Below are positions 2,681 to 21,033 of a stretch of 64,000 nt of DNA, in pieces. The translations under genes and the position numbers were made by a program. The notes beneath the pieces are model-generated. The model did no database searches. It was not told where the DNA came from and saw only the letters and a list, made by a program, of their open reading frames with translations. The stretch comes from Vibrio casei (GTDB lineage: Bacteria; Pseudomonadota; Gammaproteobacteria; Enterobacterales; Vibrionaceae): positions 2,108,001 to 2,172,000 of the forward strand of contig NZ_AP018680.1 in assembly GCF_002218025.2 (NCBI RefSeq). The letters run 5' to 3'. Every line of letters begins with the position of its first letter. Position 1 is the stretch's first letter.

Positions 2681-2935
2681 CTACTTGCGTCGGCCAAACG
2701 GCCAGCGTCTCATTTTGTCGATTTGATCGACTGATCTCGTCATGTCCTTGTAAGCTCGCCCGGCTAACCTGTTTTGGAATACCTCCATTTTGTCGGCAAT
2801 GGCCTTCATCTTCGGGCCGTGTCCGGTGCTGAGCAGCCACTGCCCCAAAAAATAGAAGGCTAACATCACAATGAACATCACTGCGAAGAAACCAAATACC
2901 TCCGCAAGGTTTTGAGGTGGAAAGTTAAACTCCAT
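2681..2935 (-). CDS. Small predicted membrane protein of the conjugation block
   Basis: An 84-residue protein with one hydrophobic segment at about residues 12-34 (FGFFAVMFIVMLAFYFLGQW) and a basic C-terminal tail ending RRWPFGRRK. I do not recognise a family. It is the last gene of the minus-strand run that contains trbJ, trbK and trbL homologues and lies 20 bp downstream of its neighbour, so it is probably co-transcribed. In IncP plasmids small trb genes of poorly known function follow trbL, but no clear match to trbM-trbP is visible. Confidence 0.6.
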   Translation of the reverse strand: MEFNFPPQNLAEVFGFFAVMFIVMLAFYFLGQWLLSTGHGPKMKAIADKMEVFQNRLAGRAYKDMTRSVDQIDKMRRWPFGRRK

Positions 2936-4503: not shown

Positions 4504-4701
4504 TTAGAACCCCTTGTTCTTGGAGCGATCAGTGGGTTCGCCCATATCCCAAAGACAGTTCCCTTTTTCCTTCTGCTCTTTCGTCAGGTTCGGGTTGTCA
4601 CAGTTGATCGTTGCAGGCTTTGGCCCGTCATCTTCGCCGCACCCCACCATAGCAAAAGAGGCCAACGCGCTAACGATAAAAACTCGGGTGATATTCTTCA
4701 T
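4504..4701 (-). CDS. trbK: TrbK-like lipoprotein, candidate entry-exclusion factor
   Basis: A 65-residue lipoprotein precursor: a basic N-terminus, a hydrophobic core and the lipobox MVGC followed by GEDDG. RP4 TrbK is a lipoprotein of similar size that mediates entry exclusion, and its gene also lies between trbJ and trbL. The call rests mainly on size, lipobox and position, because these proteins diverge fast. The C-terminus DMGEPTDRSKNKGF is nearly the same as the end of the TrbJ-like protein next door, and the gap to the next ATG is also the same (2 bp). Confidence 0.65.
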   Translation of the reverse strand: MKNITRVFIVSALASFAMVGCGEDDGPKPATINCDNPNLTKEQKEKGNCLWDMGEPTDRSKNKGF

Positions 4702-4703
4702 GA

Positions 4704-5477
4704 TTAAAACCCCCTGTTTTCTGAACGGTCGGTTGGCTCGCCCATATCGAACAACCTTTCACGAGACGCTTGATATTGAGCTTCGCGGTCAGCATCCGCC
4801 TGCATTCGAGTGCCAACGGCATTCTGCTGAGCAATCAGCAGGCTACGGATTTGCAGGAGCTGGTTAGCCTGGTTGCTGGCGAGCTGGTTAGCGTAGCCAA
4901 TAGCCGCCAATTGGCCGTCCGCGCTCTGAGCACCAGATTGCAGGCGGTTAAGCTGACGGGCATCGGCTTCCAAGTTATCTTGCTGCTGCTCCAGACTCCT
5001 AAACAGTGCGTCGTTGGCCTTTTTCTGCGATTCAGACGCAAGGCGTCGGTTCTCGGTCATTGCGGCCCGTTCTGCATCGCTGCACCCCGCTGCCGAGAAA
5101 CAAGGAGAGCTGCGGTAATAGGCCACGTCCTGGAACTTGCCTAGGTAAGCATCGAGGCTGCCAAGCTGGTTCTGGTAATAGGCGAGCGTGTTGGTCGCCT
5201 GGTTCAGATCGTTGATGGTGCGCTGCGCCTGGTCCCAAATATAAGAAGCTGGGGCCATCGAGTTTTGCAGCATATTTTCGTACTGCTGCAACTGGGTTTG
5301 ATACTGCTGAATTTGTTTAGCAGTCTGTGTAACAGCTTCCATTGCCGACATGATGTTCTGAATTAGATTCGTACCATCAGCAACCGGAATCCCCGCATAT
5401 ACAGGATTAGAAAGGTTTAACGCCAAGGAGATGGCAAGCACGGGAATTTTAGCCGCTAAAATTTTTCGTTTTAGCAT
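4704..5477 (-). CDS. trbJ: TrbJ-like (VirB5-type) conjugal transfer protein
   Basis: A 257-residue exported protein. Residues 1-28 form a signal peptide ending near NPVYAG; the rest is Gln-rich and helical (TAKQIQQYQTQLQQYENMLQ, RSLEQQQDNLEADARQLN), which is typical of TrbJ/VirB5 proteins. These proteins lie in the periplasm or at the pilus tip. In IncP plasmids trbJ has also been connected with entry exclusion. It opens the minus-strand run trbJ-trbK-trbL. About 240 bp separate it from the relaxase gene. The last 14 residues, DMGEPTDRSENRGF, are shared with the TrbK-like protein. Confidence 0.8.
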   Translation of the reverse strand: MLKRKILAAKIPVLAISLALNLSNPVYAGIPVADGTNLIQNIMSAMEAVTQTAKQIQQYQTQLQQYENMLQNSMAPASYIWDQAQRTINDLNQATNTLAYYQNQLGSLDAYLGKFQDVAYYRSSPCFSAAGCSDAERAAMTENRRLASESQKKANDALFRSLEQQQDNLEADARQLNRLQSGAQSADGQLAAIGYANQLASNQANQLLQIRSLLIAQQNAVGTRMQADADREAQYQASRERLFDMGEPTDRSENRGF

Positions 5478-5714: not shown

Positions 5715-7475
5715 TCAACGTGAGTGGCTCTTTTGTTGTCGTTTCGCTTTTTTAGCTGCCTGCTCAGCTTGGAGCTTAGCTTTACGCTGCTCTAGTGCCG
5801 ACATGACCGCCGCTTTTTGAGTTACAGAGCCTGACTGTATCGCTAAGACCTCTAACTGAGATAGGTTTTGCAACCGGCCACGGCGTGGAGGTGGCACTTT
5901 GCCAATCGGTAACACGCCAGGCTTATCAGACCGCTTGGCCATGTTATTCTGGGCCATTAATGCCTGACGACGGCGTTCTAGTTCTTGATCGGCAAATTTG
6001 ATAGACAGATTGCCATCTACCGCCGCCTTGATTACTCGCGCTTTGAACTCAGGCGAACCATTCACGGTAATACGATTACCGTAACGCTCCATTGCTATCT
6101 TTAGTGCAGTTAAGACACTGGTTTGGTTGGAAGCCGTCGACACTTGCAGACGCTCACCATCATCACGCACGGCGCTGTTACCTGCTCGATAAATAATGGT
6201 GCCTTTTTTCGTAATCGTATCGACCGTTGCTTTGGGCTCAGCCTGAACTGCATCTCCTTTGAGGGTATTACCTTTAAGCTTTTGTGCAGCCTCTCTGCTA
6301 CGTAGCGCTTTGAGGGCCTCGCTATCTCCCAGCAATGCCTCGCTCTTTAACCAATCCGCCCAGGCTTGGCGTTTATTGCTTTGATATATCGTTTGCCGTT
6401 GCTCTTGGTAACGCTTGTGAATGCGCTCAAGCTCGCTTTTTAATGCATTGCTGGCCTGTTTGTACAAAAGCGTCTTAGTAAGCTTATTGCTACCGGTTAA
6501 CTTAATCGCTGCGCGACGGCCACGCCCTTTCCTCTTGGCGTTTTCAACATGTCGATCTTTATCACGACGAGCCTGTTCAAGGGCTTGCGACTTACTCGCT
6601 GCGGCACGTTTCTGCTCTGCTTGATAACGGGCATATAGCTCGGTGGTATTCACCTTAAAGTGAACAGGTCGGTGTGTATATTGGCGGCTCGGCTTAACAG
6701 AATCCGATGCAGTCGCTTCAAAGGGACCAAGGCGCGCTTCGAGTTTGGGTTTAGAAAACTCACGTCCCAAGGTGCTCGCTTTGATGATCGCTTCACCGTC
6801 GGCAACGATCACTAGACCATTTCCTCTGGTTCTTAACTGCAAACCATTGTCCTGCATGACCTGGTGCAACGCCTGCCAGCTATTGGCTGATTTAATCTCG
6901 TCCATGCATTCGCGCTTCACCCAACCCACTAAGCTTTCAATACCCGAATGCCGCTCCATATCCATCGCACGTGATTCGGCCCCGCGCTTGCGCGGTATAT
7001 GATTATCCGGCTGCAAACCAAAGTCCTGCTCGATGGCCTCGCACATTTCCGCTAGCTTCTTATGCGGGTAGTACGGCTCATGGATTGTGTTGCGAGTAGG
7101 GTGAATCTTGTTAATTGCTATATGGATATGTTGATTGTCCGTATCGTTATGTACAGCACTGACACGCTGATGCTCACCGTAGCCCAAGCCTTGGCAAAGG
7201 CGTTCTTCTATCGCGGCTAAAGTATGCGCTTCTAACTGTTCACCATTAGGGAAGCTCACTATCAGGTGGTAGGTTTTATCACTCTTTGCTCGGGTGTTCG
7301 CAAACTGAGTCGCCAACACCTCACTGATCGCATCGCGTACGCTTTTCGCTTCACAGTTATTTAAACGAACGTTACCAAGTCGATGCGCTTTGCACTGGTG
7401 ATCGGTGATGTAATTCACCAAGCCTGCAAAGTCAGATTTCCCCTGAGAACGCATCGGTACATGCTTGGCGATCAT
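5715..7475 (-). CDS. traI: IncP/RP4-type relaxase TraI
   Basis: A 586-residue MOB-P relaxase very close to RP4 TraI at its N-terminus (MIAKHVPMRS). The likely nicking tyrosine is Tyr22 (LVNYITDHQ), and the metal-binding histidines His116 and His118 lie in HNDTDNQHIHIAINKIHP, the same numbers as in RP4. The enzyme cuts one strand at oriT and stays covalently bound to the 5' end during transfer. The C-terminal part is shorter than in RP4 (about 730 residues) and ends in a Lys/Gln-rich tail. The start codon overlaps the end of traJ (ATGA), as expected for a coupled relaxosome operon reading away from oriT. Confidence 0.93.
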   Translation of the reverse strand: MIAKHVPMRSQGKSDFAGLVNYITDHQCKAHRLGNVRLNNCEAKSVRDAISEVLATQFANTRAKSDKTYHLIVSFPNGEQLEAHTLAAIEERLCQGLGYGEHQRVSAVHNDTDNQHIHIAINKIHPTRNTIHEPYYPHKKLAEMCEAIEQDFGLQPDNHIPRKRGAESRAMDMERHSGIESLVGWVKRECMDEIKSANSWQALHQVMQDNGLQLRTRGNGLVIVADGEAIIKASTLGREFSKPKLEARLGPFEATASDSVKPSRQYTHRPVHFKVNTTELYARYQAEQKRAAASKSQALEQARRDKDRHVENAKRKGRGRRAAIKLTGSNKLTKTLLYKQASNALKSELERIHKRYQEQRQTIYQSNKRQAWADWLKSEALLGDSEALKALRSREAAQKLKGNTLKGDAVQAEPKATVDTITKKGTIIYRAGNSAVRDDGERLQVSTASNQTSVLTALKIAMERYGNRITVNGSPEFKARVIKAAVDGNLSIKFADQELERRRQALMAQNNMAKRSDKPGVLPIGKVPPPRRGRLQNLSQLEVLAIQSGSVTQKAAVMSALEQRKAKLQAEQAAKKAKRQQKSHSR

Positions 7476-7846
7476 TGGTCCGCTCTCGGGCGAAGAATAG
7501 ATTCCATAAGTGAACTCATTTGATCTTGCGTCTCCTCGATACGATTAAGCACTGCCAAGATCGTATTGGCCCCAACATGTGCCACCTTGGCATCATTACT
7601 AAGCCATAACTTAAGCAAACCACCCAAACGCCCTAAGTCACCATTCACTCTTACCAGTTCGCGTACCTGTTCAACATCAGTAACTCCTTGAATGCGATAA
7701 CCTTGGCCTACTTCACGCAAATAGGTCGAAGTACTGAGCCCTGCCTGTGCTGACATGGATTCGATCAGCGCACGCTCTTCCGGTAGGCAATAGACCTTAA
7801 TCGGAGGACTATTCTTTCTCGTCGTCTTATTTGTGTTGTTCTCCAT
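7472..7846 (-). CDS. traJ: TraJ-type oriT recognition protein
   Basis: A 124-residue protein matching RP4 TraJ (123 residues) along its length: SPPIKVYCLPEERALIE, TYLREVGQGYRI, and RVNGDLGRLGGLLKLWL. TraJ binds the right arm of the oriT inverted repeat next to nic and recruits TraI. I chose the ATG at 7846, preceded by GAGAGG, because a longer upstream frame would start inside oriT. As in RP4, traJ reads away from oriT and is followed by traI with a 4-base overlap. Confidence 0.9.
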   Translation of the reverse strand: MENNTNKTTRKNSPPIKVYCLPEERALIESMSAQAGLSTSTYLREVGQGYRIQGVTDVEQVRELVRVNGDLGRLGGLLKLWLSNDAKVAHVGANTILAVLNRIEETQDQMSSLMESILRPRADQ

Positions 7847-7867
7847 CTGTGTATCCTCTCTCAGGCC

Positions 7868-7975
7868 CCGCAGGGCAGGATCAACGTTGAGTGCCGAAGG
7901 TGCGAATAAGTCATAAGTGAAGAGGCTTCGCCATGCTTGCATGGAGGGCCTACTTCACACATCCTGCCCGCATTT
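7868..7975. other. IncP/RP4-like origin of transfer (oriT)
   Basis: The segment carries the landmarks of RP4 oriT in the right order: GCAGGATC...CGTTGAG (7875-7891), AGGTGCGAATAAG (7898-7910), an inverted repeat of left arm GTGAAGAGGC (7917-7926) and right arm GCCTACTTCAC (7948-7958), a small inner hairpin (CCATG/CATGG, 7931-7944), and the nic region CTTCACACATCCTGCCCG (7953-7970). By analogy with RP4 the cut would fall in ATCCTG^C between 7966 and 7967. Its place directly upstream of traJ-traI supports the call. No traK gene is found on the other side. Confidence 0.9.
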
Positions 7976-8167: not shown

Positions 8168-8520
8168 ATCACGACACAGAAAAACACCGCTTTCCTAACA
8201 CTTTCCGCTCTAGGCTAAATTCAAAGCCTTCGTATTTAACTGCCCCTCAAGTGTCAATGAATGTTTAAACACCAAGGTAACCACCATAAAAATACATAAC
8301 TTCCAAAAAATGATTTCATTGACAGTTTTGATCACGACACAGACAAACATCGCTTTCTTAACACTGTCCGCCCTATGGTAAATTCAAAGCCTTCGTGTTT
8401 GACTGCCCCTCAAATGTCAATAAATGCTTAGACGCCAAGGTGAAAATAATAAAAATTACTTTATCTTCATATGGTTAAAAAAATACAACTTCCAAAAAAA
8501 TGATTTCATTGACACTTTTG
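8168..8520. repeat. Two tandem copies of a 163/190-bp repeat
   Basis: Copy 1 spans 8168-8330 and copy 2 8331-8520. Both begin ATCACGACACAGA and share the block AAATTCAAAGCCTTCGT, the block ACTGCCCCTCAA and the end ATGATTTCATTGACA. Copy 2 has about 27 extra AT-rich bases near 8445-8480. No reading frame is conserved between the copies, so this is a DNA-level duplication. It lies between oriT and the DnaA box and iterons and is probably part of the plasmid origin region. Confidence 0.8.
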
Positions 8521-8539
8521 AGCAACCTATTGATCAAAG

Positions 8540-8548
8540 TTATCCACA
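8540..8548 (+). promoter_or_regulatory. DnaA box
   Basis: A perfect TTATCCACA lies next to a very AT-rich stretch (8570-8590) and upstream of the iterons. The arrangement is typical of iteron plasmid origins, which load host DnaA. Confidence 0.7.
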
Positions 8549-8657
8549 ATATTTGTTTGTTCAACTACAGGTTTATTTTTTTATATAGGTATACCTACAG
8601 GAAAGACTATAGGAGGTTCTGCAACCACATGTTATTAAAAAGCTTTTTAGCCTTTCT

Positions 8658-8757
8658 AGAAACAGAACATGCGCACTCAGAAACAAAACATGCGCAGCCA
8701 GAAACAGAACATGCGCAAAATCCCCCCTTTAAAGGGAAACAGAACATGCGTGGATAA
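8658..8757. repeat. Iteron array of a plasmid replication origin, with a second DnaA-like box
   Basis: Four direct repeats of AGAAACARAACATGCGCA start at 8658, 8679 and 8700 (21-bp period), with a fourth, slightly changed copy at 8735-8752. The fourth runs into CGTGGATAA (8749-8757), a one-mismatch DnaA box on the other strand. The array lies about 55 bp beyond the stop codon of a RepA-family gene. Such iterons bind the plasmid's own initiator to start and limit replication. Short reading frames cross the array on both strands but only reflect the repeats. Confidence 0.85.
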
Positions 8758-8812
8758 CTTTCTAAACACCCAGGCTTACTAACATCAAGAATGGTGCGTA
8801 CATACTGTTTCA

Positions 8813-9819
8813 TCACACTTCAATATCCCGTGAAACCTGTAGCTTTGTCTGACGAGGTACTTGAGGAGCACTAGGCTTCAAAAGCAACCCTTTTTCGGTT
8901 GGAGTAGCATCTAGCTCTGGCCATGCCTGCTGTACCTTTTTCAGTCCATCCTTAAACCGCTGCTTAAAGCTTTTTACATTGGCATAATTAGACCCCATTT
9001 GCTCCATCAAACCTGACCACGGAATAATTGTGGCTCGCTTTAAGTAACTCACCCGATAAGTCGCCCAACAATATATGTCTAAAGCCATCGGAGAACGCTT
9101 AATCAACCGCAACACTCTCATATCCAGAGGGACCGGTTTATCAGTAATCAATTGAAAAAATTTAGGCGACAGTTCCACCCAAGATTCCCATAGTGAATCT
9201 TGATCAGGTTGCTTCGTACTCCACCAAATATGGGAAATATCAGCAACTCTGGCTCCAGTTTCATCTTCACAAATATATCCACTTTCATCATTTAGCTCTG
9301 TATAGCTAACACTGATCGTCGTTTTAAATAATCGCCGCATTTGTTCTCGAAAAGGACCAATGGTTCCATTTTCGCCTCCAGTTGAACCTAGCCCTAGCTC
9401 TTCCATAAAACGTCTTTGAGAATGTCCCAGATCAAGCTTGCGTGCTTCCTGTTCAGTGATAAAACCACTGTCCAGTCTTGACTTATTTCTTACTGCTTGT
9501 GTACTGACCCAAACCAACAACAAACGTGCATAGCAACCGTAAGGCAAACCTACAGATGAGGGGGCCATCATGTGCATTGTGAAATGACCATTCTTGCGGC
9601 TCCACTCATTCGATTTGGGCTTACTATGCGGTATAGTTGCTTGAATCAGAAGCCGAGCGATAAAACCGAGTTCATTCGCTTCCTGAGCACTGCGCTCCTG
9701 GATTGCTATGATGTTGTCGATATATTTGTGCTGATCTCTAGCTTACCGCTGGTAACCGAGGCACTTTTTCGCCGAGTGGTTCCCTTAGCCTGAACATCCG
9801 TTACATCTTTAATCGTCAT
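8813..9819 (-). pseudogene. repA: RepA-family plasmid replication initiator, frameshifted near its 5' end
   Basis: The main frame matches the plasmid RepA C-terminal family: VGLPYGCYARLLLVWVSTQAV, then LGHSQRRFMEELGLGSTGG and QMRRLFKTTISV. The longest ATG frame (8813-9577, 254 residues) starts inside the conserved part. Homology-like sequence continues upstream in the same frame to 9742 (IDNIIAIQERSAQEANELGF, ARLLIQATIPHSKPKSNEWS) with no ATG, GTG or TTG. A start ATG at 9817-9819, 12 bp after the alpA-like gene, opens another frame (MTIKDVTDVQAKG) that ends at 9706. Joining the two needs a -1 shift between 9709 and 9742, which fits a one-base deletion. The gene is therefore probably inactive, unless the base is a sequencing error or translation starts inside. 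Confidence 0.8.
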
Positions 9820-9831
9820 GTGGACTCAGAC

Positions 9832-10056
9832 TTACCAAATAAAACCAGGTCTTGCGGCTTTTAACGCAGACCTACGTTTTTCTTCTATCCAGTTCTCAAC
9901 CTCAGTTAGGTCCCAAGCAACACTTCGGCTGGTCAGAACAATACGGCGAGGGAACTCCCCACGCTGTTCCAGGTTATAGATGGTTCGATCAGATAGCGGA
10001 ACCATACGCAGTAATGTTTTTCTATTAATCAGTGTCTTATGTGCTAGTTCATGCAT
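9832..10056 (-). CDS. AlpA-family helix-turn-helix regulator
   Basis: A 74-residue DNA-binding protein with the AlpA/MerR-like winged helix: LINRKTLLRMVPLSDRTIYNLE, then RGEFPRRIVL, SRSVAWDLTEVENWI and EKRR. Proteins of this family act as excision or transcription regulators in phages and islands. I chose the ATG at 10056, which has AGAGG seven bases upstream, over a longer frame without such a site. Its stop is 12 bp before the repA start, so the two probably form an operon, and it may control replication or excision. An unknown gene is transcribed divergently from 10214. Confidence 0.75.
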   Translation of the reverse strand: MHELAHKTLINRKTLLRMVPLSDRTIYNLEQRGEFPRRIVLTSRSVAWDLTEVENWIEEKRRSALKAARPGFIW

Positions 10057-10213: not shown

Positions 10214-11422
10214 GTGAAACTTTATAAAAATCGCATGTTGAGACTGGGTAATGATATGGATAGTATTGAGTCAGAAAAAGATGCAGCAAAGCGCTTAGGC
10301 TTATACAATTTTTTAATCATAGATAAAGGCTGTGATGAGTTTGTATCTCAGGCTATCAAAAGATTCCGGGATGAATGGGGGCCATATTCTCAGTACTCTA
10401 CGCGTAGGAATATTATTAACTTAATTCACAAATCATTAGACAATAGCATTTCAAGATTTATTAATAATCTTCCTGAGAAGTATCAATATTTCTTTCCAAA
10501 ACAAGACAAAAAGATATCTTTAAGCTTATTGATTAAAGAGTTAGGTTTTCAAGAAGCCCATAAGGAAATAAAAAGACATCTAGCATTTTTCATCGAATAC
10601 AATAGTTCTGGCACTGAAACAGATAGACGATTTATCGCCACTTTAGAAGCAATAATAAATCTAGTTTGGATGTGTTATCTAAGACGGCCGAAATTCCAAG
10701 AGTACTCAACTGATGTAAAAATTAATACTACTAGAAAGCAGACTTTATGTGAGTTCTGCGGCGAAAAAACAGAATTAACGTCATTTATAGAATCATTAGA
10801 TAAGAATATCATTCAATATAAAGATCTAGACGATATAAAATTAATGGCTCTAAGCCATAATTTTTGCTCACGCCATAAACAAAAGAAAAATAATACTTCG
10901 GCTTATAAACGAGCAAAACGCTCTCAAAATCAGTTTGAAACCGAAGTATTAAGATTACGCCGACAAGTAGCCAAACCAGATAAGCGTAATGCTATGTCAG
11001 GTGATGAACTCATAGACGAATATTTCTATCTCTACCTTCAGGGGAAAATGGTCACGTCAGAACAAGCTGAAGCTTATATGAACTATGTACGCAAAACATT
11101 TGGCAATCAAATAAAAGTCGATACAACTATGCTCCATCACTTACATGAGATTTCGGATTCTCTGACTAATGAAGGAACTATGATTTCTTCCGGTGATATT
11201 GACAAAATTCGAAACATAGCTCGAAGAATGGTCGATTCGAGGATCACTGATAACAAGAAAAGAATACTAGTTTTGAAACAAAGAAAGCTTAGCCAAAAAG
11301 AGATTGCTCAAGAACTTTCAGAATACACTGGTCAGCACATAATTCACCAAACCGTATCTAAGGCGCTTTCATCTGTTCGAGATGAATTTTTTCTATGTGT
11401 TAATTTAGCCGCTAAAATTTGA
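10214..11422 (+). CDS. Unknown protein with Cys/His cluster and C-terminal helix-turn-helix
   Basis: A 402-residue protein that I do not recognise. It has no signal peptide or membrane span. A CxxC pair (Cys179, Cys182) and a cluster His215-Cys218-His221 (SHNFCSRH) could bind one zinc ion. Around residues 350-392 the stretch KQRKLSQKEIAQELSEY followed by TVSKALSSV looks like a helix-turn-helix of the sigma-region-4/GerE kind. The region before is basic (RAKRSQNQ, RLRRQVAK). The start is a GTG; ATGs at residues 8 and 15 are possible. The gene is clearly more AT-rich than the tra genes, suggesting a separate origin. A DNA-binding regulator or a defence-type accessory protein are both possible. 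Confidence 0.7.
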   Translation: MKLYKNRMLRLGNDMDSIESEKDAAKRLGLYNFLIIDKGCDEFVSQAIKRFRDEWGPYSQYSTRRNIINLIHKSLDNSISRFINNLPEKYQYFFPKQDKKISLSLLIKELGFQEAHKEIKRHLAFFIEYNSSGTETDRRFIATLEAIINLVWMCYLRRPKFQEYSTDVKINTTRKQTLCEFCGEKTELTSFIESLDKNIIQYKDLDDIKLMALSHNFCSRHKQKKNNTSAYKRAKRSQNQFETEVLRLRRQVAKPDKRNAMSGDELIDEYFYLYLQGKMVTSEQAEAYMNYVRKTFGNQIKVDTTMLHHLHEISDSLTNEGTMISSGDIDKIRNIARRMVDSRITDNKKRILVLKQRKLSQKEIAQELSEYTGQHIIHQTVSKALSSVRDEFFLCVNLAAKI

Positions 11423-12344: not shown

Positions 12345-13310
12345 ATGAGTAAAAAAATGACCATGGCTGAGATTTCAAGGCAGCTTGGAATTTCAACAAT
12401 GACTGTGTCGCGTTACTTTAATGGCGGTTATGTCTCGGAAGAGAACCGCCTTAAAATTGATGCCATCGTCAAAGAGAGTCATTACACGCCTAATATATTT
12501 GCTCGCTCCATTCGTAGCCAATCCAATATTATTGGTTTCATCGCGCCTCGTATTGAGTCATATACGACCAGTTTAGTGATTAAAGGGGCGCTGGCTGCTG
12601 CCAATGAATCACAAGTACGAATGCTGTTTCATGCCACAGGGTTTAACCATGAGTCAGAATGCCAAGCTGTGAGAGAGTTTAACGGCTTAAATGCATTGGG
12701 CACGATTATTATTGCGTCAAAGCACAGTGTCGAAGAGACTTTTTATCGAACCTTAGACAATGTGGTATTTATTGGCAAAAATACCCCCCACCATTGCTGT
12801 TTATATTACCCCGATCATGCAGCGATTAAAGCCCTCGTCTCCCACACCATCACTCAGTTAAAACAGCAGCAGGCACCGCTGGCTGCCGTACATTATATTT
12901 ATGATGAGCGTATGCTTTCTAGCCGCACTAAGTTGATGCAAGCCACTATTACCGACACCGTCCCTGAGTTGAATTTATCACTACAAGCCCTAGCCAACTC
13001 GGAGGACAAAGCTGGCTATCAGGCCGTTCAATTACAGCCTAATCATGTCTACTTTTGTGCCACCGATAATATTGCCATTCGTTTATATCGTCGCGCCAAA
13101 GAACAGCAACTCAAGATCGGTCATAACGTATGGATTGTAGGCATGGGTGACTATGACTACAGCGATTTGTTAGTCCCGAGCCTGACGACTGTCGCTTTTA
13201 ACTACTATCAAGTGGGCTACCAAGCTGTCAAAAAATTGCTCAAGCGCGATTTCAGTTCTGTTGAAGGCACATTCGACATAAAGATGAGAGAAAGCTCACA
13301 ATTCCTCTGA
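12345..13310 (+). CDS. LacI-family regulator of the alpha-glucoside operon
   Basis: A 321-residue LacI-type repressor. The N-terminal helix-turn-helix is clear (MAEISRQLGISTMTVSRYFNG) and is followed by the hinge helix region (NIFARSIRSQSNIIGFIAP) and a periplasmic-binding-protein-like sensor domain to about residue 315. It lies upstream of, and on the same strand as, a GH13 glucosidase, a PTS transporter and a MapP-like phosphatase. The LacI-type operator at 13348-13365 sits between it and those genes. It probably represses them until an alpha-glucoside, or its phosphorylated form, is present. The effector is not known. Confidence 0.85.
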   Translation: MSKKMTMAEISRQLGISTMTVSRYFNGGYVSEENRLKIDAIVKESHYTPNIFARSIRSQSNIIGFIAPRIESYTTSLVIKGALAAANESQVRMLFHATGFNHESECQAVREFNGLNALGTIIIASKHSVEETFYRTLDNVVFIGKNTPHHCCLYYPDHAAIKALVSHTITQLKQQQAPLAAVHYIYDERMLSSRTKLMQATITDTVPELNLSLQALANSEDKAGYQAVQLQPNHVYFCATDNIAIRLYRRAKEQQLKIGHNVWIVGMGDYDYSDLLVPSLTTVAFNYYQVGYQAVKKLLKRDFSSVEGTFDIKMRESSQFL

Positions 13311-13347
13311 AATTGTGTTGAGTCCAAATCGGTTCTACTTAACCATG

Positions 13348-13365
13348 TGTGTTAACGATAACACA
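13348..13365. promoter_or_regulatory. LacI-type operator before the glucosidase gene
   Basis: TGTGTTA-ACGA-TAACACA has perfect 7-bp arms around a central CG, the usual shape of LacI-family operators. It lies 13 bp before the glucosidase start codon and 38 bp after the regulator gene. No second copy was found upstream of the regulator gene. Confidence 0.7.
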
Positions 13366-13378
13366 TATGGTATAACCG

Positions 13379-15112
13379 ATGACACTCGCTCCTAATATGC
13401 ACTCAAAACCACTCGCGTGGTGGAAGAAAGCAACCGCCTACCAAATTTATCCCCGTAGTTTTTATGATACAAACCAGGACGGTATTGGTGACATCAATGG
13501 CATCATTGCTAAGCTCGATTATCTTGCTGATTTGGGCATTGATTTAATATGGATTTGCCCATTCTATGCATCACCTAATGATGATAACGGGTACGATATT
13601 AGTGACTATCAAGCGATTCATCCTGACTTTGGAACCCTTGAGGATGTGGATGAACTAATCAGTGCTGCTCATAAACGTGGCATTCGCATTATTATGGATT
13701 TAGTGATCAACCACACTAGCGACGAGCACCCATGGTTCATTGAATCTCGAGATAACAAAAATAGCCCTAAGCGCGATTGGTATATTTGGCGTGATGGTTG
13801 TGAGCCTACCGCTGAAAAACCGACTTGCGACCCAAACAACTGGGAAAGTATTTTTCATGGCAGTGCATGGGAATATGATAAAAAAACTGCACAGTACTAC
13901 TTGCACCTATTTTCAAAAAAACAACCTGATCTGAATTGGGAAAATCCTGAAGTTAAACAAGCACTATTTAAAATGATTTGTTGGTGGTTGGAGCGCGGTA
14001 TTGATGGTTTTCGTGTGGATGCAATAAGCCATATTCAGAAACAACCAGGTTTACCTTCTTTACCCAATCCAAAGGGTGAAAAGTATGTCTCTTCGTTTGA
14101 TTATCATATGAATGTGGCAGGGATTGAAAAACATCTGCATGAGTTAAAAGAGCAGGCGTTTGATCCCTTTAACATAGTGACAGTTGGTGAGGCTAATGGG
14201 GTGACTGCCGACAATGCATTACTTTGGGTTGCCGAAGCGACCGAGCACGATCAAGGCGGTGTTTTCAACATGATTTTTCAGTTTGAACACATGAAGCTAT
14301 GGTCGGAAGAACAAAGCAACGTGCCTTTAGATCTAGTGGAGTTCAAACGCATTTTATCGCGTTGGCAAGATGCATTAGAAGGTAAAGGCTGGAATGCGCT
14401 TTATTTAGAAAACCACGATCAAGCTCGTAGCATTGATACTTTTGCCGACCCTACCTCTAGGTATGCCAGTGCTACCGCGTTAGCGAGTTGTTATTTCTTG
14501 ATGAAAGGAACTCCGTTTATTTATCAGGGCCAAGAGATTGGTATGGTAAATCATCAGTTTACTTCTCTTGATGAATTTAATGATGTGTCTGCTAGAAATT
14601 TAATTCAAAAGCTATCTCAACAAGGTCAAAGCGATGCAGACATCTTAGCCTTGTTAAATCAAGTATCTCGCGACCACAGTCGCTTGCCAATGCAATGGAA
14701 TGCGCAGGATTTTGCCGGTTTTTCTGAGGTGCAACCTTGGTTCTCCGTCAATCAACAGTACGCAGATATCAATGTTGAGCAACAACAGAAAGATCCAAAT
14801 TCGATTTTGAGTTTCTATAAGCAGCTGATTGCTCTGCGTAAGTCAAATGTAAGTTTAGTGGTTGGCCGCTATCAATTGCTGCTACCTAACGACCCTAATA
14901 TCTATGCTTATCAACGTGTTGCACAAGATATGACATGGACCATTATTACCAATTTAAGTCCACAAGAGAGCATCGTTGATATCGACCGCATGCAATTAGG
15001 CGAGTTAATGCTTGATAATCAGAATATCAACAATGAACACGTTCGCTCAGATTTTATAGCGACGCAAATTGCCCCACCTTATGCTGCGTATATATTTGCA
15101 AGAAAGCACTAA
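13379..15112 (+). CDS. GH13 alpha-glucosidase (maltase type)
   Basis: A 577-residue cytoplasmic enzyme of the alpha-amylase family. It starts WWKKATAYQIYPRSFYDTNQDG and carries the conserved regions: MDLVINHT, FRVDAISH with the nucleophile Asp, VGEANG with the acid/base Glu, and ENHDQAR with the third acidic residue. In this subfamily an Ala or Thr just after the nucleophile usually goes with alpha-1,4 specificity and Val with alpha-1,6; here it is Ala (VDAIS), favouring maltose-type substrates. Trehalose-6-phosphate hydrolase is the main alternative. No ribosome binding site is visible before the ATG at 13379; a later ATG at 13397 is possible. It lies in an operon with a PTS permease and a MapP-like phosphatase. 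Confidence 0.85.
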   Translation: MTLAPNMHSKPLAWWKKATAYQIYPRSFYDTNQDGIGDINGIIAKLDYLADLGIDLIWICPFYASPNDDNGYDISDYQAIHPDFGTLEDVDELISAAHKRGIRIIMDLVINHTSDEHPWFIESRDNKNSPKRDWYIWRDGCEPTAEKPTCDPNNWESIFHGSAWEYDKKTAQYYLHLFSKKQPDLNWENPEVKQALFKMICWWLERGIDGFRVDAISHIQKQPGLPSLPNPKGEKYVSSFDYHMNVAGIEKHLHELKEQAFDPFNIVTVGEANGVTADNALLWVAEATEHDQGGVFNMIFQFEHMKLWSEEQSNVPLDLVEFKRILSRWQDALEGKGWNALYLENHDQARSIDTFADPTSRYASATALASCYFLMKGTPFIYQGQEIGMVNHQFTSLDEFNDVSARNLIQKLSQQGQSDADILALLNQVSRDHSRLPMQWNAQDFAGFSEVQPWFSVNQQYADINVEQQQKDPNSILSFYKQLIALRKSNVSLVVGRYQLLLPNDPNIYAYQRVAQDMTWTIITNLSPQESIVDIDRMQLGELMLDNQNINNEHVRSDFIATQIAPPYAAYIFARKH

Positions 15113-15171
15113 ATTATATTTATCGCAGGGCCTTGATAAGGCTACCCTGCATTTAAACCAAGGAATCATTT

Positions 15172-16800
15172 ATGAGTCAGTTACTATCTTTTGATTTTTG
15201 GCAACGATTTGGGAAATCCCTTATCGTTGTTATCGCGGTGATGCCAGCCGCTGGTATCATGATATCACTCGGTAAAGTTGTCGCAATGTATGCCGGTGGT
15301 ATTGGTGCCATTGAAACACTAGGCGCTATTATGGAAAACATAGGCTGGGGGATCATAGTTAATCTTCACCTATTATTTGCTGTCGCTATTGGTGGATCAT
15401 GGGCTAAAGAACGTGCAGGAGGAGCATTTGCCGCGCTGATCGCCTTCATCTTAATTAACCGTATCACTGGGGTTATATTAGGCGTGGATAACGCTATGCT
15501 CAGTGATCCCGAGGCGGTTGTGATGAGCCTATTTGGTTCTGAGCTACCTGTCTCTCAATTCTTCACTAATATTTTGGGTGCTCCTGCTCTAAATATGGGT
15601 GTGTTTATCGGTATTATGTCTGGCTATTTAGGTGCCAACTTATTTAACCGTTATCATGACTTCGCTCGCTTACCTCAGGCATTAGCATTTTTCAACGGTA
15701 AGCGTTTTGTACCTTTTGTTGTTATTTTCTATTCGATGATTATTGCGTTTGCTTTATCAATCGTATGGCCTTTAATTCAAGGTGCGCTTAATGATTTTGG
15801 TCAATGGATTGCAACCTCTAAAGACACTGCGCCGATCACTGCTCCTTTCTTGTATGGTACGTTAGAGCGCTTATTACTGCCATTTGGTTTACACCACACT
15901 TTAACTATTCCAATGAATTACACCGAGTTGGGTGGTACTTATGAGCTTTTAACAGGGGTGAATGCGGGGGCAAGTGTTTATGGTCAAGATCCACTATGGC
16001 TTGCTTGGGTTAGCGATTTAAATAATCTTAAATTAAGCGATCCGACAACTTACCAACATCTATTAGATACGGTGCATCCAGCACGTTTTAAAGCGGGCCA
16101 AGTTATTATCGCAGCGTCTTCATTGATTGGTATTGGACTTGCGATGTATCACTGTGTTGATAGTGATAAGCGCGCACAATACAAGCCAATGTTTTTATCT
16201 GCGTGTCTTGCTGTGTTATTAACCGGTGTGACAGAGCCTATTGAATTCATGTTTATGTTTATTGCTCCTGTTTTGTATGTTGCGCATGCGGTATTAACAG
16301 GGATTGCATTTGCGTTGGTCGATGTGATGGACCTACGTATACATGCCTTTGGTTTGATTGAGTTACTCACTCGTATACCTATGATGGTTTCAGCGGGAAT
16401 CGGTGGTGATTTGGTTCGCTTCGCATTGGTTTCTATTGTTTTCTTTGGTGTTAACTATGGATTATTCCGTGTGCTCATTGTCAAATTTAAATTGCCAACA
16501 CCGGGCCGTATGGGTAACTACCTCGATGAAAGTTCAGAATCCATGTCAGAAGATGAGAAGATGGACATTATTATTCAGAATTTAGGTGGCCGTGCCAATA
16601 TTGCTGAGATTGATGCTTGTATGACTCGCTTGCGCATTACAGTTAATGACCCGCAGTTGGTTGCTGAATATGCATTATGGAAGCCGACAGGAGCACTTGG
16701 TGCTGTAATTAAAGAACAGGGAGTACAAGTTATTTATGGTCCAGGAGTGGATGTCATTAAATCTAGATTAGTTGAGAAGCTTTCAGCACAACCTGCGTAA
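15172..16800 (+). CDS. Alpha-glucoside PTS permease, IICB
   Basis: A 542-residue PTS transporter of the glucose/glucoside superfamily. The membrane IIC domain takes up residues 10-440 and includes the substrate-site motif LPFGLHHTLTIP and GVTEPIEFMFMF. A IIB domain follows at the C-terminus with the phosphorylated Cys in DACMTRLRITV. No IIA domain is fused, so a host IIA-Glc-type protein must supply the phosphate. The IIC-IIB order and the motifs fit the alpha-glucoside group, which imports maltose-like sugars as 6'-phosphates, rather than TreB, which has IIB first. It lies 59 bp after the glucosidase gene. Confidence 0.85.
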   Translation: MSQLLSFDFWQRFGKSLIVVIAVMPAAGIMISLGKVVAMYAGGIGAIETLGAIMENIGWGIIVNLHLLFAVAIGGSWAKERAGGAFAALIAFILINRITGVILGVDNAMLSDPEAVVMSLFGSELPVSQFFTNILGAPALNMGVFIGIMSGYLGANLFNRYHDFARLPQALAFFNGKRFVPFVVIFYSMIIAFALSIVWPLIQGALNDFGQWIATSKDTAPITAPFLYGTLERLLLPFGLHHTLTIPMNYTELGGTYELLTGVNAGASVYGQDPLWLAWVSDLNNLKLSDPTTYQHLLDTVHPARFKAGQVIIAASSLIGIGLAMYHCVDSDKRAQYKPMFLSACLAVLLTGVTEPIEFMFMFIAPVLYVAHAVLTGIAFALVDVMDLRIHAFGLIELLTRIPMMVSAGIGGDLVRFALVSIVFFGVNYGLFRVLIVKFKLPTPGRMGNYLDESSESMSEDEKMDIIIQNLGGRANIAEIDACMTRLRITVNDPQLVAEYALWKPTGALGAVIKEQGVQVIYGPGVDVIKSRLVEKLSAQPA

Positions 16801-16886
16801 TTCATTCTCTACCCTAGATAAAATAACCTCGAGAAACGCAGCCTTGAGCTGCGTTTAACTCGCTACAATGAATAAGTGAATAATAA

Positions 16887-17693: not shown

Positions 17694-17960
17694 TGTTTAT
17701 TCATAGACTAAACCTTAAGCAATACTGGACTTTTAATTACGTGACTTTGCAATACCTGTAGTTATTCAGGACTTTCTAATTTAGTAAAGGCGCTGACACG
17801 TTTTTGTCCAAAAATCAGTTACGTTGAATGTCAGTTACCTTAACAAGCTTAAAATGAGACGAGTCAAAAATGATACTTAGATGGCTGTCAGATATGATTA
17901 ATTTCTCATCAAATCTGACAGATCAAGTTAAGACTTACTCGTATAATTGATAGCAAGATA

Positions 17961-19148
17961 TTAAGTGGTCCACTCATCAATCATGTCAGACCAGTCCTGC
18001 AACATGGCCGCGCGCTGTTCTCGGTATTCGGCTTTATTGTAAACAGCCCTCACTCCTTTCTGTTCGTGCGCCAGGCATTTTTCTATCCAATCAGTGTTGT
18101 ATCCTGCTTCATGCAGCAGTGTACTCGCTGTTCTACGAAGGTCATGCGGCCCAAACTTACTTAGTGACTGCCCATCCTTCTGCGCAGCCTTGTATGTTAG
18201 AGCCAATACACGATTCATTGTCGCACTGCTCATTGGGGCATCTGAGTCATAACGAGAAGGAAGAATGTAATCAGACCCACCGGCAAATGTCTTCAAGGCG
18301 ATCAAAATATCCATCACCTGGCGTGACAAAAACACCAGATGCGGGTTACGTCGTTTCATCCTTTCTTTAGGGATTGTCCACAACGCTTCGCTAAAGTTAA
18401 TTTCACTCCAAGTTGCATTGGTTAACTCGCTTTTACGTACCATAGTCAGCAAAAGCAACTTTACCGCAGCACGAATCGAAGGCGTGGTTCCTACCTTTTC
18501 CATATAGCGGTACATCAAACCGATCTCAGCAGGTGATAATGTTCGGTCTCTTGGCTCAAACCGAGCGATACTTGCAGGCCTCACCAAATCTGCCGGGTTC
18601 TCAACTTTCTGCCCTCTCTCAATTGCCCACCGATACACCTGGAGTACAATATCACGCGTGTGTACAGCCGTTGCGGGCGCGCCACGCTCTACTATCGCGT
18701 CAGTCAGTGCTCGCAGATCTTCATGGGTAATTTCTGTGAGTTTCCAATTACCAAATTTATCTTTAAGTTCTCGGGCATAGACTGAACGACGCATATCCCA
18801 GGTGGAATCGGCCATCTGATAGCCACGCAGCCATTTTATAGCCCAGGCACCAAAAGTTTCAGCATCTTTCGTTCTCGCCTTCGCACGGGCTTTCTCTTTG
18901 GCCGGTGACTTTCCATCAATAACCATTCTCTTCGCTTCATTGAGGCGCTCACGCGCTTCTGCTAGCGTGATGCCCCCTACTCCGTAGCGTCCAAAGGTGA
19001 TGGTTTCTTGCCTGCCATTGATTGAGTAGTTGTAGCGAAAGGAGATAGACCCCGCTTTGGTGACAGCAACATAGAGGCCATCACGGTCATTGACTTTGTA
19101 AAGTTTACCTTTGGGGTTGAGATTGCGTAGCTTGGTATCAGTCAGCAT
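17961..19148 (-). CDS. P4-type tyrosine integrase of a guaA-associated island
   Basis: A 395-residue site-specific recombinase. The N-terminal DUF4102-like arm-binding domain (MLTDTKLRNLNPKGKLYKV, RQETITFGRYG) is followed by a core-binding domain and a catalytic domain. Catalytic residues are visible: Arg in TMVRKSELTNATW, HDLRRTAS, the His in LAHEQKG, and the nucleophile Tyr in VRAVYNKAEY. The start lies about 310 bp from the 3' end of guaA, a known integration site for genomic islands. The matching site at the far end was not found. The gene is intact. Confidence 0.9.
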   Translation of the reverse strand: MLTDTKLRNLNPKGKLYKVNDRDGLYVAVTKAGSISFRYNYSINGRQETITFGRYGVGGITLAEARERLNEAKRMVIDGKSPAKEKARAKARTKDAETFGAWAIKWLRGYQMADSTWDMRRSVYARELKDKFGNWKLTEITHEDLRALTDAIVERGAPATAVHTRDIVLQVYRWAIERGQKVENPADLVRPASIARFEPRDRTLSPAEIGLMYRYMEKVGTTPSIRAAVKLLLLTMVRKSELTNATWSEINFSEALWTIPKERMKRRNPHLVFLSRQVMDILIALKTFAGGSDYILPSRYDSDAPMSSATMNRVLALTYKAAQKDGQSLSKFGPHDLRRTASTLLHEAGYNTDWIEKCLAHEQKGVRAVYNKAEYREQRAAMLQDWSDMIDEWTT

Positions 19149-19172
19149 GTTTCGACCTATTATTCTTATTTA

Positions 19173-19320
19173 ATACCATGCTGAAACACCTCTAAAAAAC
19201 TAGAGATTAATACTTATAAAACAGATAGATATAAAAATTTAATACCATACCCCATCAAAAACACTCAGCATGGTATCGGGCGTAATCCATGGCATTACCG
19301 ATGAATCATACCCATCAAAA
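19173..19320. promoter_or_regulatory. Inverted and direct repeats upstream of the integrase gene
   Basis: ATACCATGCTGA (19173-19184) and TCAGCATGGTAT (19265-19276) are perfect inverted copies. A related AATACCATAC lies at 19241-19250. CCCATCAAAA occurs at 19251-19260 and again at 19311-19320, exactly 60 bp apart. Such sets near integrase genes often serve as arm-type integrase or excisionase sites and as autoregulatory operators. The crossover site itself could not be placed. Confidence 0.5.
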
Positions 19321-19386
19321 TACCACGGTCAAACCGTGCTTGGCGTTGCCAGACATTGCCAAAAATGACTAGGCCAAAAACAAAAA

Positions 19387-19408
19387 AAGTCCGCAATTAC
19401 GCGGACTT
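19387..19408 (-). terminator. Terminator after guaA
   Basis: A perfect 8-bp stem AAGTCCGC / GCGGACTT with a 6-base loop, followed on the minus strand by a run of T. It lies 48 bp beyond the guaA stop, before the integrase control region. Confidence 0.8.
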
Positions 19409-19455
19409 AAGGTTGATTTAGTGCCTGTTAATGCCAGACCTTTCTTAAAGGAAGA

Positions 19456-21033
19456 TTATTCCCACTCAATCGTCGCGGGTGGTTTGCCTGAAATATCGTA
19501 AACCACACGAGAGATACCATCGATTTCATTGATGATACGGTTAGAAACCTTACCTAGGAAATCGTATGGTAGGTGCGCCCAATGTGCGGTCATGAAATCA
19601 ATGGTTTCTACCGCGCGTAGTGATACAACCCAATCGTATTTACGGCCATCGCCCATGACGCCAACCGAGCGTACAGGTAGGAATACCGTAAAGGCTTGAG
19701 ATACTTTATTATAAAGATCCGCAGCATGAAGCTCTTCAATGAAGATAGCATCGGCGCGACGTAGTAAGTCACAGTATTCTTTCTTCACTTCACCCAGTAC
19801 ACGCACACCTAGACCAGGACCAGGGAATGGGTGACGGTAAAGCATGTTGTACGGCAAACCTAGCTCTAGGCCAATCTTACGTACTTCATCTTTAAACAGT
19901 TCGCGTAATGGCTCAACTAAGCCCATTTCCATATCATCAGGCAAGCCGCCAACGTTATGGTGAGATTTGATCACGTGCGCTTTACCGGTTTTCGATGCCG
20001 CAGACTCAATCACATCTGGGTAGATAGTGCCTTGAGCTAACCATTTAGCATTTTGAAGTTTCTTCGATTCTTCATCAAAGATATCGACAAAAACATGACC
20101 AATAATTTTACGTTTCGCTTCTGGTTCCGCTTCGCCACCAAGTGCATCAAGGAAGCGATTTTCTGCATCAACATGAATAATGTTAAGACCGAAGTGATCG
20201 CCAAACATGTCCATCACTTGCTCGGCTTCGTTCAAACGCAATAAGCCGTTATCAACGAATACACAGGTAAGCTTAGGACCAATTGCGCGGTGGATTAGCA
20301 TTGCAACCACTGACGAATCAACACCACCAGATAGACCTAGGATCACTTCATCATCGCCCACTTGCTCTTTAATGCGAGCAACCGCGTCTTCGATGATTGA
20401 AGATGGCGTCCATAGTTTGCTACAACCACAGATGTTCAACACAAAGTTCTCAAGCATGCGTAAGCCTTGACGAGTGTGCGTCACTTCTGGGTGAAATTGT
20501 ACGCCGTAGAAGCGTTTTTCATCATTAGCCATTGCCGCGTATGGGCAAGTATCCGTTTGAGCAACTTTGGTGAAATCACTTGGGATCTCGACCACTTTAT
20601 CACCGTGGCTCATCCAAACATCTAAAAGCGGTTTGCCATCTTCAGAGATTGCATCTTCAATGTTGGCAAACAAAGCGCAGTCTTCAACCATTTTCACTTG
20701 CGCGTAGCCAAACTCACGTTCATTAGAACCGGCGACTTTACCACCTAGTTGCTCAGACATGGTTTGCATGCCGTAACAAACGCCAAATACCGGTACGCCA
20801 GCATTAAAAACATATTCAGGTGCGCGAGGAGAACCGGCTTCTGTGACGCTTTCAGGTCCACCAGATAAGATAATACCGTTTGGATTAAATTCGCGGATAT
20901 CCGCTTCGTCTACATCCCAGCTCCACAGTTCACAGTACACACCGATTTCACGGATACGACGAGCAATCAATTGAGTGTATTGAGAGCCAAAATCTAAAAT
21001 TAAAATGCGTTCAGCATGGATATTGGTTGTCAT
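19456..21033 (-). CDS. guaA: GMP synthase (glutamine-hydrolysing)
   Basis: A 525-residue enzyme that converts XMP to GMP using ATP and glutamine. The class I amidotransferase domain (residues 8-205) has the catalytic Cys in VFGVCYGMQ and the His in GVQFHPEV. The ATP-pyrophosphatase domain has the P-loop SGGVDSSV, and the C-terminal dimer domain ends [10 protein letters not shown]. It follows guaB on the same strand with a 172-bp gap, so the two form the usual guaBA operon. The 3' end is intact even though an island integrase sits next to it, which is normal for islands that restore the target gene on insertion. Confidence 0.98.

What the first reader, a model, noticed from the sequence alone, without database searches (positions are those of the whole stretch)
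7472..7975. RP4/IncP-type relaxosome (traJ plus oriT) on a chromosomal element in a Vibrio-like genome
Seen: oriT landmarks of RP4 in order, with nic region ATCCTGCCC, next to TraJ- and TraI-like genes, and TraI keeping Tyr22, His116 and His118 at RP4 numbering. Established: in IncP plasmids TraJ and TraI act at this site. Inference: the element can be mobilised by an IncP-like helper that supplies coupling protein and channel, because no traG, traK or trbB-I genes are in the window.
Basis: partly seen in the sequence, partly recalled or inferred. Interest (0 to 1): 0.72.

Follow-up and report, generated by a model that had tools for sequence, protein, structure and literature searches.

The report
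IncP island with tail-mimicking exclusion cassette
The chromosomal DNA element is an ordinary hitch-hiking island that borrows a plasmid's transfer machine, but it led to an unexpected pattern: the small protein thought to shield a cell from repeat DNA transfer ends in nearly the same short sequence as the transfer machine's own tip protein, which may explain how cells recognise and refuse their own kind of plasmid.

Summary
The oriT, TraJ and TraI are real and RP4-like. No TraG or TrbE family member was found in the genome. This is a guaA-integrated 'IncP island', a known kind of integrative mobilizable element, in a lineage where no TraK was found (0 of 15 members). That part is ordinary.

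Not ordinary: the last ~15 residues of TrbJ (VirB5 tip protein) and TrbK (entry-exclusion lipoprotein) match each other within an element, while the shared sequence differs between element types (window: FDMGEPTDRSENRGF / WDMGEPTDRSKNKGF). Over 22 non-redundant systems no shuffle of 100,000 reaches the observed match; two later sets repeat it (0 and 41 of 50,000). Identical residues share codons no more than codon usage predicts. The tail co-varies with TrbL residues ~100-280, hardly with the rest of TrbJ. Near-identical islands carry three different tails. I infer that TrbK mimics the TrbJ tail, that this sets exclusion specificity, and that TrbL is the likely partner. RP4's own pair is only modestly alike. 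No experiment was done.

The parts
2681..2935 (-). small ORF, 84 aa (MEFNFPPQNL...), at the distal end
   Evidence: read from the sequence; a query made from nearly this stretch in a shifted frame gave 81-88% tblastn hits at the same place in L002, L003, L004, L043, L045
2956..3231 (-). small ORF, 91 aa, downstream of trbL; 66-92% identical in L002-L009, L043, L045
3209..4501 (-). trbL (VirB6 family), 430 aa; residues ~100-280 co-vary with the TrbJ tail
   Evidence: NCBIfam TIGR02783 254.5 bits, cut-off 128.85; co-variation
4504..4701 (-). trbK, 65-aa entry-exclusion-type lipoprotein (lipobox MVGC), tail WDMGEPTDRSKNKGF
   Evidence: position between trbJ and trbL; tail match
4704..5477 (-). 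trbJ (VirB5 family), 257 aa, tail FDMGEPTDRSENRGF
   Evidence: NCBIfam NF010452 389 bits, cut-off 286
5715..7475 (-). traI, MobP relaxase, 586 aa
   Evidence: NF041893 568.6 bits, cut-off 250; catalytic residues; the one PF03432 match in the genome
7472..7846 (-). traJ, oriT-binding relaxosome protein, 124 aa
   Evidence: NF010451 181.7 bits, cut-off 134, match starting at residue 33 of the longer ORF
7865..7970 (+). oriT; nic between 7966 and 7967 on the + strand (inferred from RP4)
   Evidence: alignment to RP4 and with 26 other elements
8168..8456 (.). two 126-bp direct repeats (8168-8293, 8331-8456; 85% identical) where other elements have traK
   Evidence: no TraK found
8658..8752 (+). 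four 18-bp iterons (AGAAACAGAACATGCGCA); GTTATCCAC and GTGGATAAC arms at 8536-8547 and 8750-8761; likely replication origin (inferred)
8813..9577 (-). repA (RepA_C family PF04796)
9832..10056 (-). AlpA-like small DNA-binding protein, 74 aa (name recalled, no family search made)
   Evidence: sequence and conserved place in relatives; a gene annotated AlpA family lies upstream of trbJ in pL29
10214..11422 (+). 402-aa ORF without Pfam or NCBIfam match; distant relatives (32-44%) at the corresponding place in many islands, none detected in L008
12345..17693 (+). cargo: LacI-type regulator, GH13 alpha-amylase family enzyme, PTS EIIBC, exo/endonuclease-phosphatase family protein
17961..19148 (-). 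tyrosine integrase with Arm-DNA-binding domain
19456..19500 (-). 3' end of guaA, insertion site (attachment core GAGTGGGAATAA inferred from relatives)

Best explanation
A guaA-integrated mobilizable island of the IncP-island kind. Inferred cycle: the integrase excises it, RepA and the iterons may keep the circle, TraI/TraJ nick oriT, and an IncP-like helper supplies the coupling protein and most of the channel. The island adds its own tip protein TrbJ, platform TrbL and exclusion lipoprotein TrbK. Shown here: in many MPF-T systems the exclusion protein ends in the type-specific tail of the VirB5/TrbJ of its own element, and that tail co-varies with TrbL residues ~100-280. Inferred: the TrbJ tail docks on TrbL, and TrbK in the recipient presents the same tail, so that it captures or competes for the matching part of an incoming machine. 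The tail is then the exclusion 'type'.
For: Element. Tail match: 22 non-redundant systems, summed own score 1081 against shuffle mean 437 and maximum 758 of 100,000; own TrbK ranks first for 13 of 22 TrbJ tails and in the top three for 21 of 22; of five control segment pairings four gave sums below the shuffle mean and one z 0.3. Held-out set 1: 16 independent loci, own partner best in 6, 0 of 50,000 shuffles. Held-out set 2: 17 independent loci, own best in 6, 41 of 50,000. Codons, tested in 14 of the 22 systems: 114 identical residues (M and W left out), 48 identical codons, 45.2 expected from codon usage. Islands with TraI 92-96% identical to the window's carry three tail types, with TrbL 94-96%, 61-62% or 42% identical. 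Across 23 systems TrbJ-tail similarity correlates 0.78 with TrbL 1-280 and 0.33 with the TrbJ body; along TrbL, 40-residue windows starting at 101-261 give 0.68-0.81, those at 301-381 give 0.14-0.29 (22 systems). Published, passages seen: in RP4-mediated killing, of the tra2 genes and traF expressed in recipients only trbJ and trbK protect, and R388 and R6K do not (PMC11045733); C-terminal truncation or an early stop in TrbK ends exclusion in pKPC_UVA01 (PMC8923210); known donor targets TraG and TraY stand in the VirB6 row of the table in PMC12624023.
Against: RP4's own pair is only a modest match (score 28; GSYRASPSKTW / GGFKPSEKKEW) and its TrbJ tail scores higher with at least five other IncP-type TrbKs (35-46). 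pP9014 is weak (25, rank 10 of 22); IncN R46 and IncW R388 score only 21 and 22, though ranked 1-3. Ten of 16 loci in set 1 and 11 of 17 in set 2 do not rank first; many of those candidate ORFs look spurious or may not be exclusion proteins. trbJ 3' end, trbK and trbL are adjacent, so linkage can create part of the co-variation; the window-wise correlations carry no significance test. How a recipient protein would reach donor TrbL is not clear. In pKPC_UVA01 exclusion also needed trbK in the donor, and its TrbK excluded IncP and IncN plasmids too (PMC8923210), neither of which my model predicts. No transfer, binding or structure data; the fold job never ran.
Confidence: 0.65

Rival explanations
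1. Plain IncP-island IME; the TrbJ/TrbK tail similarity is a relic of descent: trbK arose by duplication of the 3' end of trbJ and is kept similar by gene conversion, without a role in recognition.
For: The genes are adjacent and in the same orientation; paralogy would give similarity for free.
Against: Identical residues share codons only as often as codon usage predicts (48 of 114, expected 45.2, in 14 systems), so no recent conversion; tails differ strongly between types yet match within them; the TrbK C terminus is needed for exclusion in print.
Confidence: 0.15
2. The co-variation of TrbJ tail, TrbK and TrbL is linkage only: the stretch is exchanged as one DNA block, and TrbL is not the partner of the tail.
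For: trbK and trbL lie directly downstream of the tail codons; TrbK tail (r 0.90) and TrbL (0.73) both follow the TrbJ tail.
Against: Along TrbL the correlation dips to 0.33 and 0.17 at windows starting at 41 and 61, nearer to trbJ, then rises to 0.75-0.81 at 101-141; a window of similar conservation further on (start 181, mean identity 0.70) keeps 0.68 against 0.17 for window 61 (0.74).
Confidence: 0.3
3. One reading: simple mobilisable element using a helper's complete channel; trbJKL are decaying leftovers of an integrated IncP plasmid.
For: No TraG, TrbE or second PF03432 relaxase was found.
Against: trbJ, trbK and trbL have open frames and are conserved in close relatives (TrbJ body 80-100%). 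Of 73 loci, 29 hold trbJ and trbL, all 29 with a TrbK-like lipoprotein frame between them, 28 of them within about 1 kb of traI (L074 is the exception), and none of the 29 shows traG or trbB-I within the fetched DNA.
Confidence: 0.1

Closest known systems
IncP island (Brucella suis 1330; Burkholderia glumae / Acidovorax), as described in the review PMC5704250 (passages; primary papers not held)
   Same: guaA 3' end, tyrosine integrase, RepA, MobP relaxase, TraJ, TrbJ-TrbK-TrbL, no TraG or other Trb reported
   Different: no TraK found here; different cargo (sugar PTS set); no distal attachment repeat found in this genome. The review proposes reshaping of the helper's mating apparatus; the passages read do not mention a TrbJ/TrbK tail match
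GIsul2 (taken as L123 in pIP40a, by the reference title in PMC5704250)
   Same: guaA-site island (review) with trbJ-trbK-trbL; tails match (MRTWTFRPSPADNY / MRQWEFKPSPKDDY)
   Different: no relaxase or TraJ according to the review
pMATVIM-7 / pPE52IMP-type mobilizable plasmids (L119; PMC9501424 passages)
   Same: traJ-traI-trbJ-trbK-trbL without the rest
   Different: free plasmids with TraK, partition genes and resistance cargo; other tail type (NWLEL)
Salmonella genomic island 1 (from PMC5704250)
   Same: mobilizable island that brings replacement subunits of the helper's mating apparatus, including TraG
   Different: other genes (TraG, TraH, TraN), no relaxase
RP4 TrbK/TrbJ entry exclusion
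   Same: same gene order and families; TrbJ or TrbK in the recipient protects against RP4 killing (PMC11045733)
   Different: RP4 tails are of a G-x-[YF]-[RK]-x-S...W class and only modestly alike

Membership tests
IncP island (guaA-integrated IME) | insertion at the 3' end of guaA with a tyrosine integrase next to it | tested here: met
   integrase 17961-19148 beside guaA 19456-21033; same order in relatives whose locus reaches guaA
IncP island (guaA-integrated IME) | own MobP relaxase of IncP type plus TraJ and oriT | tested here: met
IncP island (guaA-integrated IME) | trbJ-trbK-trbL and no other Trb genes or TraG | tested here: met
   trbB, C, D, F-I tested only in window 1-26000
IncP island (guaA-integrated IME) | TraK (reported for the B. 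glumae island) | tested here: not met
   no significant TraK in window 1-26000 nor in 14 close relatives (L002-L009, L043, L045; L108-L111). I therefore call it a TraK-less lineage close to the family rather than a typical member
IncP island (guaA-integrated IME) | direct attachment repeats at both ends | tested here: inconclusive
   24-bp repeat in L006 and 13-bp in L003; none found in most other loci examined nor in the window, where an ISL3 transposase fragment lies at the distal end
IncP island (guaA-integrated IME) | transfer with an IncP helper | not testable with these tools
TrbK-type entry exclusion protein | small lipoprotein between trbJ and trbL | tested here: met
   65 aa, lipobox
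TrbK-type entry exclusion protein | excludes cognate transfer from a recipient | not testable with these tools
   needs mating experiments

The most novel reading that the evidence does not exclude
Entry exclusion in MPF-T conjugation systems (IncP, IncN, IncW, Ti-like, Neisseria and many islands) works by molecular mimicry: the exclusion protein carries a copy of the C-terminal tail of its own VirB5 tip protein, the tail is read by VirB6, and mobile islands change exclusion type by swapping the trbJ tail-trbK-trbL cassette.
Probability: 0.55. Interest if true: 0.9.

Novelty: new variant of a known kind. Interest (0 to 1): 0.78.

Why it matters
How IncP-type plasmids recognise their own kind is open: PMC8923210 (passage) states that no donor partner of TrbK has been identified for IncP. 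A shared, type-specific tail between the tip protein and the exclusion protein gives a sequence rule that could predict exclusion groups from genomes, names the tail and TrbL 100-280 as sites to test, and would explain why TrbJ as well as TrbK protects recipients. It also points to unannotated exclusion genes. Blocking conjugation with tail peptides would be a possible use.

Tried and rejected
Attachment repeats in the window: no direct repeat of 14 bases between 17600-19800 and the rest; in the 24- to 11-mer scan only an 11-mer inside guaA; no near copy of the guaA end beyond chance (4 matches at up to 3 mismatches, itself included, 3.05 expected). The distal end may have been rearranged around the ISL3 remnant (inference). 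A hidden TraK between oriT and repA: best E 1.2, elsewhere, in window 1-26000, and only short open frames there. TrbK as a query in plasmids finds one record at E 0.01. Structure prediction of TrbJ (alignment A1) never ran: machine busy, and closed the tool; no fold search was made. Solved structures of R388 TrwJ (7o3v, 8rt9, 8rtd) and TraC (1r8i) exist, but coordinates could not be read; the window TrbJ has no solved relative (one chance-level match). pKPC_UVA01 was not in the collection, so its tails are unchecked.

Rows dropped before counts. L078-L107 (shorter copies), L013 and L114 (TrbJ called short), L111 (trbJ frame shifted before its tail, TrbK without its usual start), L135 (annotated TrbK lacks a tail), L124, L129, L133 (no gene between trbJ and trbL); 53 elements remained, 22 after redundancy removal (TrbK under 60% and TrbJ under 85% identity). 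Systems added after (QKH54, pYKBG006, pCMS1, second pHH3414 frame, RP4) are not in that count; 50 loci, 1 without ORF, 27 without lipoprotein ORF, 22 left, 6 dropped as redundant. In one search the score against the last 50 residues of TrbK was chosen; the earlier 20-by-20 score gives 332 against a shuffle maximum of 330, the later one 404 against 369; 48 loci, 33 with an anchored small ORF, 17 independent; shuffle maximum 398 exceeds the observed 364; of the 6 that rank first I find L205, L224, L226 and L228 credible by eye, L201 and L230 not.

In one search trbK and the 84-aa ORF were translated from wrong ends (stops turned to X in the query file); one search gives the correct TrbK.
Full report
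What is there. The window is 64 kb of contig C1 of a 4.14 Mb genome. The genus is Vibrio: genome G135, listed as same genus, has the island at the position given for Vibrio cincinnatiensis NZ_SGOM01000004.

Surroundings. From right to left: guaA, tyrosine integrase, a cargo of sugar genes, a 402-aa ORF of unknown family, an AlpA-like gene, repA with four iterons, oriT, traJ, traI, trbJ, trbK, trbL and two small ORFs, then an ISL3 transposase fragment. The backbone recurs in Vibrio, Salinivibrio, Photobacterium and Marinomonas with TraI 91-94% identical (L002-L009, L043, L045). Within the family of the window's genome TraI of 92% or more occurs in 11 of 329 genomes, own included. Of the 73 loci, 29 hold both trbJ and trbL; none of the 29 shows traG or trbB-I within the fetched DNA, while most of the other 44 have traG beside traI, as in complete IncP-type plasmids. 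The own genome shows no VirB4/TrbE and no VirD4/TraG family member.

Known kind. The review PMC5704250 (passages) describes this: 'IncP islands' at the guaA 3' end with RepA, MobP relaxase, TraJ, TraK, TrbJ, a small TrbK-like protein and TrbL, proposed to subvert the helper's mating apparatus as SGI1 does. The present island is of that kind, in a lineage without detectable TraK (window plus 14 relatives). So the finding as given is ordinary.

The unexpected observation. Listing the C termini of TrbJ and TrbK side by side showed much the same tail in both proteins of an element: window LFDMGEPTDRSENRGF / LWDMGEPTDRSKNKGF; Marinomonas L006 YKGLREPVDRSKSKEY / YQSLEGPVDRSKSKEY; Photobacterium L008 LRAWEFQPSPIDDF / MGKWEFNPSPEDDF; Halomonas L011 MRTWNYQPSSADRY / MREWEFEPSSPDRY; pMATVIM-7 SPRNWLELTR / KPMNWLELAD. 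I then fetched 15 further plasmid systems for diversity (tails): 11 have a gene annotated between the virB5- and virB6-type genes, one (gonococcal) has an unannotated one, three have none. Examples: Sinorhizobium REKFFNADVKSIPEGQKMEPRW / KEKFFGAGKALPPIKDGQEMGPRW; Novosphingobium TKPTPIGTYQN / TKPTTIGTYQN; R388 GNQGMPTIQ / GDGMPKIR (weak). In the gonococcal plasmid the small ORF, unannotated in the record, ends VDQDVLKRPYKRKE next to a TrbJ ending VRTSDILKHPYRRGQ; PMC2848598 (passage) noted that the neisserial TrbK has very little homology to known TrbKs in its mature part. Later, Sphingopyxis pCMS1 gave RSGSYTKDATGTYGYTTPN / RGGSYKKTPPGKYEYTTPK with no lipobox, and in pHH3414 the annotated TrbK stops where its tail should begin while a second lipoprotein frame behind it ends MTKGQYRAAEPQTF beside TrbJ MTKGTYNMPTPQTF.

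Tests. 22 systems after redundancy removal: summed own-pair score 1081, shuffles mean 437, maximum 758 of 100,000; the TrbJ tail against the TrbK segment before its tail or against the TrbK start, upstream TrbJ segments against the TrbK tail, and start against start give nothing. Because the pattern was seen in part of that set, two further sets were drawn by family searches, without regard to tails. Set 1: 50 loci, 16 independent usable ones, own partner best in 6 (new tails such as SVGPDELPKQTKSW, SSGEPFELN, YIVSMKQDNGAK), 0 of 50,000 shuffles by either score; controls 3,041 and 44,065 of 50,000. Set 2: 48 loci, 17 independent, own best in 6 of which I trust 4, 41 of 50,000 shuffles; an automatic gene finder was used there and many candidate ORFs look spurious. 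In the 14 systems where codons were compared, 114 identical residues share the codon 48 times, 45.2 expected from codon usage: the DNA has diverged to saturation while the peptide match was kept.

Exclusion types switch. Among islands with TraI 92-96% identical to the window, TrbJ tails are 94-100%, 31% or 6% identical, with TrbL 94-96%, 61-62% and 42%. Conversely L026 and L112, with TraI only 59% and 57% identical, share 81% of the TrbJ tail. Across 23 systems TrbJ-tail similarity follows TrbL 1-280 (r 0.78; partial 0.79 given the TrbJ body; 0 of 5,000 permutations) far better than the TrbJ body (r 0.33). Along TrbL (22 systems, 40-residue windows) r is 0.61-0.66 at starts 1 and 21, 0.33 and 0.17 at 41 and 61, 0.48 at 81, 0.68-0.81 from 101 to 261, 0.48 at 281 and 0.14-0.29 from 301 on; along TrbJ it stays 0.15-0.34. 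Linkage alone should fall steadily with distance from the tail codons; it does not, though linkage cannot be excluded.

How it may work. In print (passages seen): VirB5 binds between VirB6 subunits in R388 (PMC9259494) and forms the pilus tip (PMC12624023); TrbK is in the cytoplasmic membrane, and of the genes tried only TrbJ and TrbK protect recipients from RP4 killing, while R388 or R6K do not (PMC11045733); the C terminus of TrbK is needed in pKPC_UVA01 (PMC8923210); the targets known elsewhere, TraG and TraY, are listed as VirB6-type (PMC12624023). Inferred: the TrbJ tail is a docking peptide for TrbL, and TrbK or TrbJ made in the recipient offers the same peptide and so captures or jams the matching incoming machine.

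Against. RP4's own pair is modest (28) and its TrbJ tail scores better with other IncP-type TrbKs; pP9014 is weak, IncN and IncW are weak though well ranked. Some systems have no gene between virB5 and virB6 (L124, L129, L133, L192). pKPC_UVA01 exclusion needed trbK in the donor too and was broad. A recipient protein acting on donor VirB6 needs a contact that is not understood. Nothing was tested in cells.

Literature. Searches for TrbK+TrbJ+entry exclusion+C-terminal (5 papers), entry exclusion+VirB5+VirB6+mimic (2), entry exclusion+VirB5+C-terminal+Eex (4) and entry exclusion+pilus tip+VirB5 since 2015 (7, 6 listed) brought no title or abstract start on such a tail match. Passages were seen of PMC8923210, PMC2848598, PMC7690428, PMC13381706, PMC11045733, PMC12624023, PMC12857230 and PMC9259494, and the exclusion section of PMC12624023 in full; none of what I saw mentions it. 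The other papers listed were not opened. Subscription papers such as Haase 1996 were not held; Lyras 1994 was seen only as a reference.

Noticed in passing
window 8536-8761: Four iterons and GTTATCCAC / GTGGATAAC arms that look like DnaA boxes (recalled) lie next to repA: the excised island may replicate.
   Followed up: no
window 8168-8456: Two 126-bp direct repeats (85% identical) occupy the place of traK beside oriT.
   Followed up: partly
window 7873-7881 and 7961-7969: An inverted copy of the nic-region sequence (GGGCAGGAT) lies at the traJ side of oriT; G[G/A]GCAGGAT is present in 26 of 27 elements aligned (L008 differs) and in RP4.
   Followed up: no
window 12345-17693: Cargo looks like a sugar PTS uptake and cleavage set; in the loci the only match was a 29% amylase-family hit in L043.
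   Followed up: no
window 10214-11422: 402-aa protein of no known family kept near alpA in many islands at only 32-44% identity: a fast-evolving backbone gene.
   Followed up: no
L118 (V. alginolyticus pL29): A 29.7-kb 'plasmid' record is annotated with YfgM and beta-propeller genes like those near guaA in the window, plus AlpA and trbJKL of the L008 tail type, and no relaxase; it looks like a guaA-site island with its flank.
   Followed up: no
L135 2432-2960: pHH3414 has two trbK frames; the annotated one lacks the tail, the unannotated one carries the tail matching TrbJ.
   Followed up: partly
L111 (G302): In this relative the trbJ frame shifts before its tail and TrbK lacks its usual start; whether this is decay or a sequencing error is unknown.
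   Followed up: no
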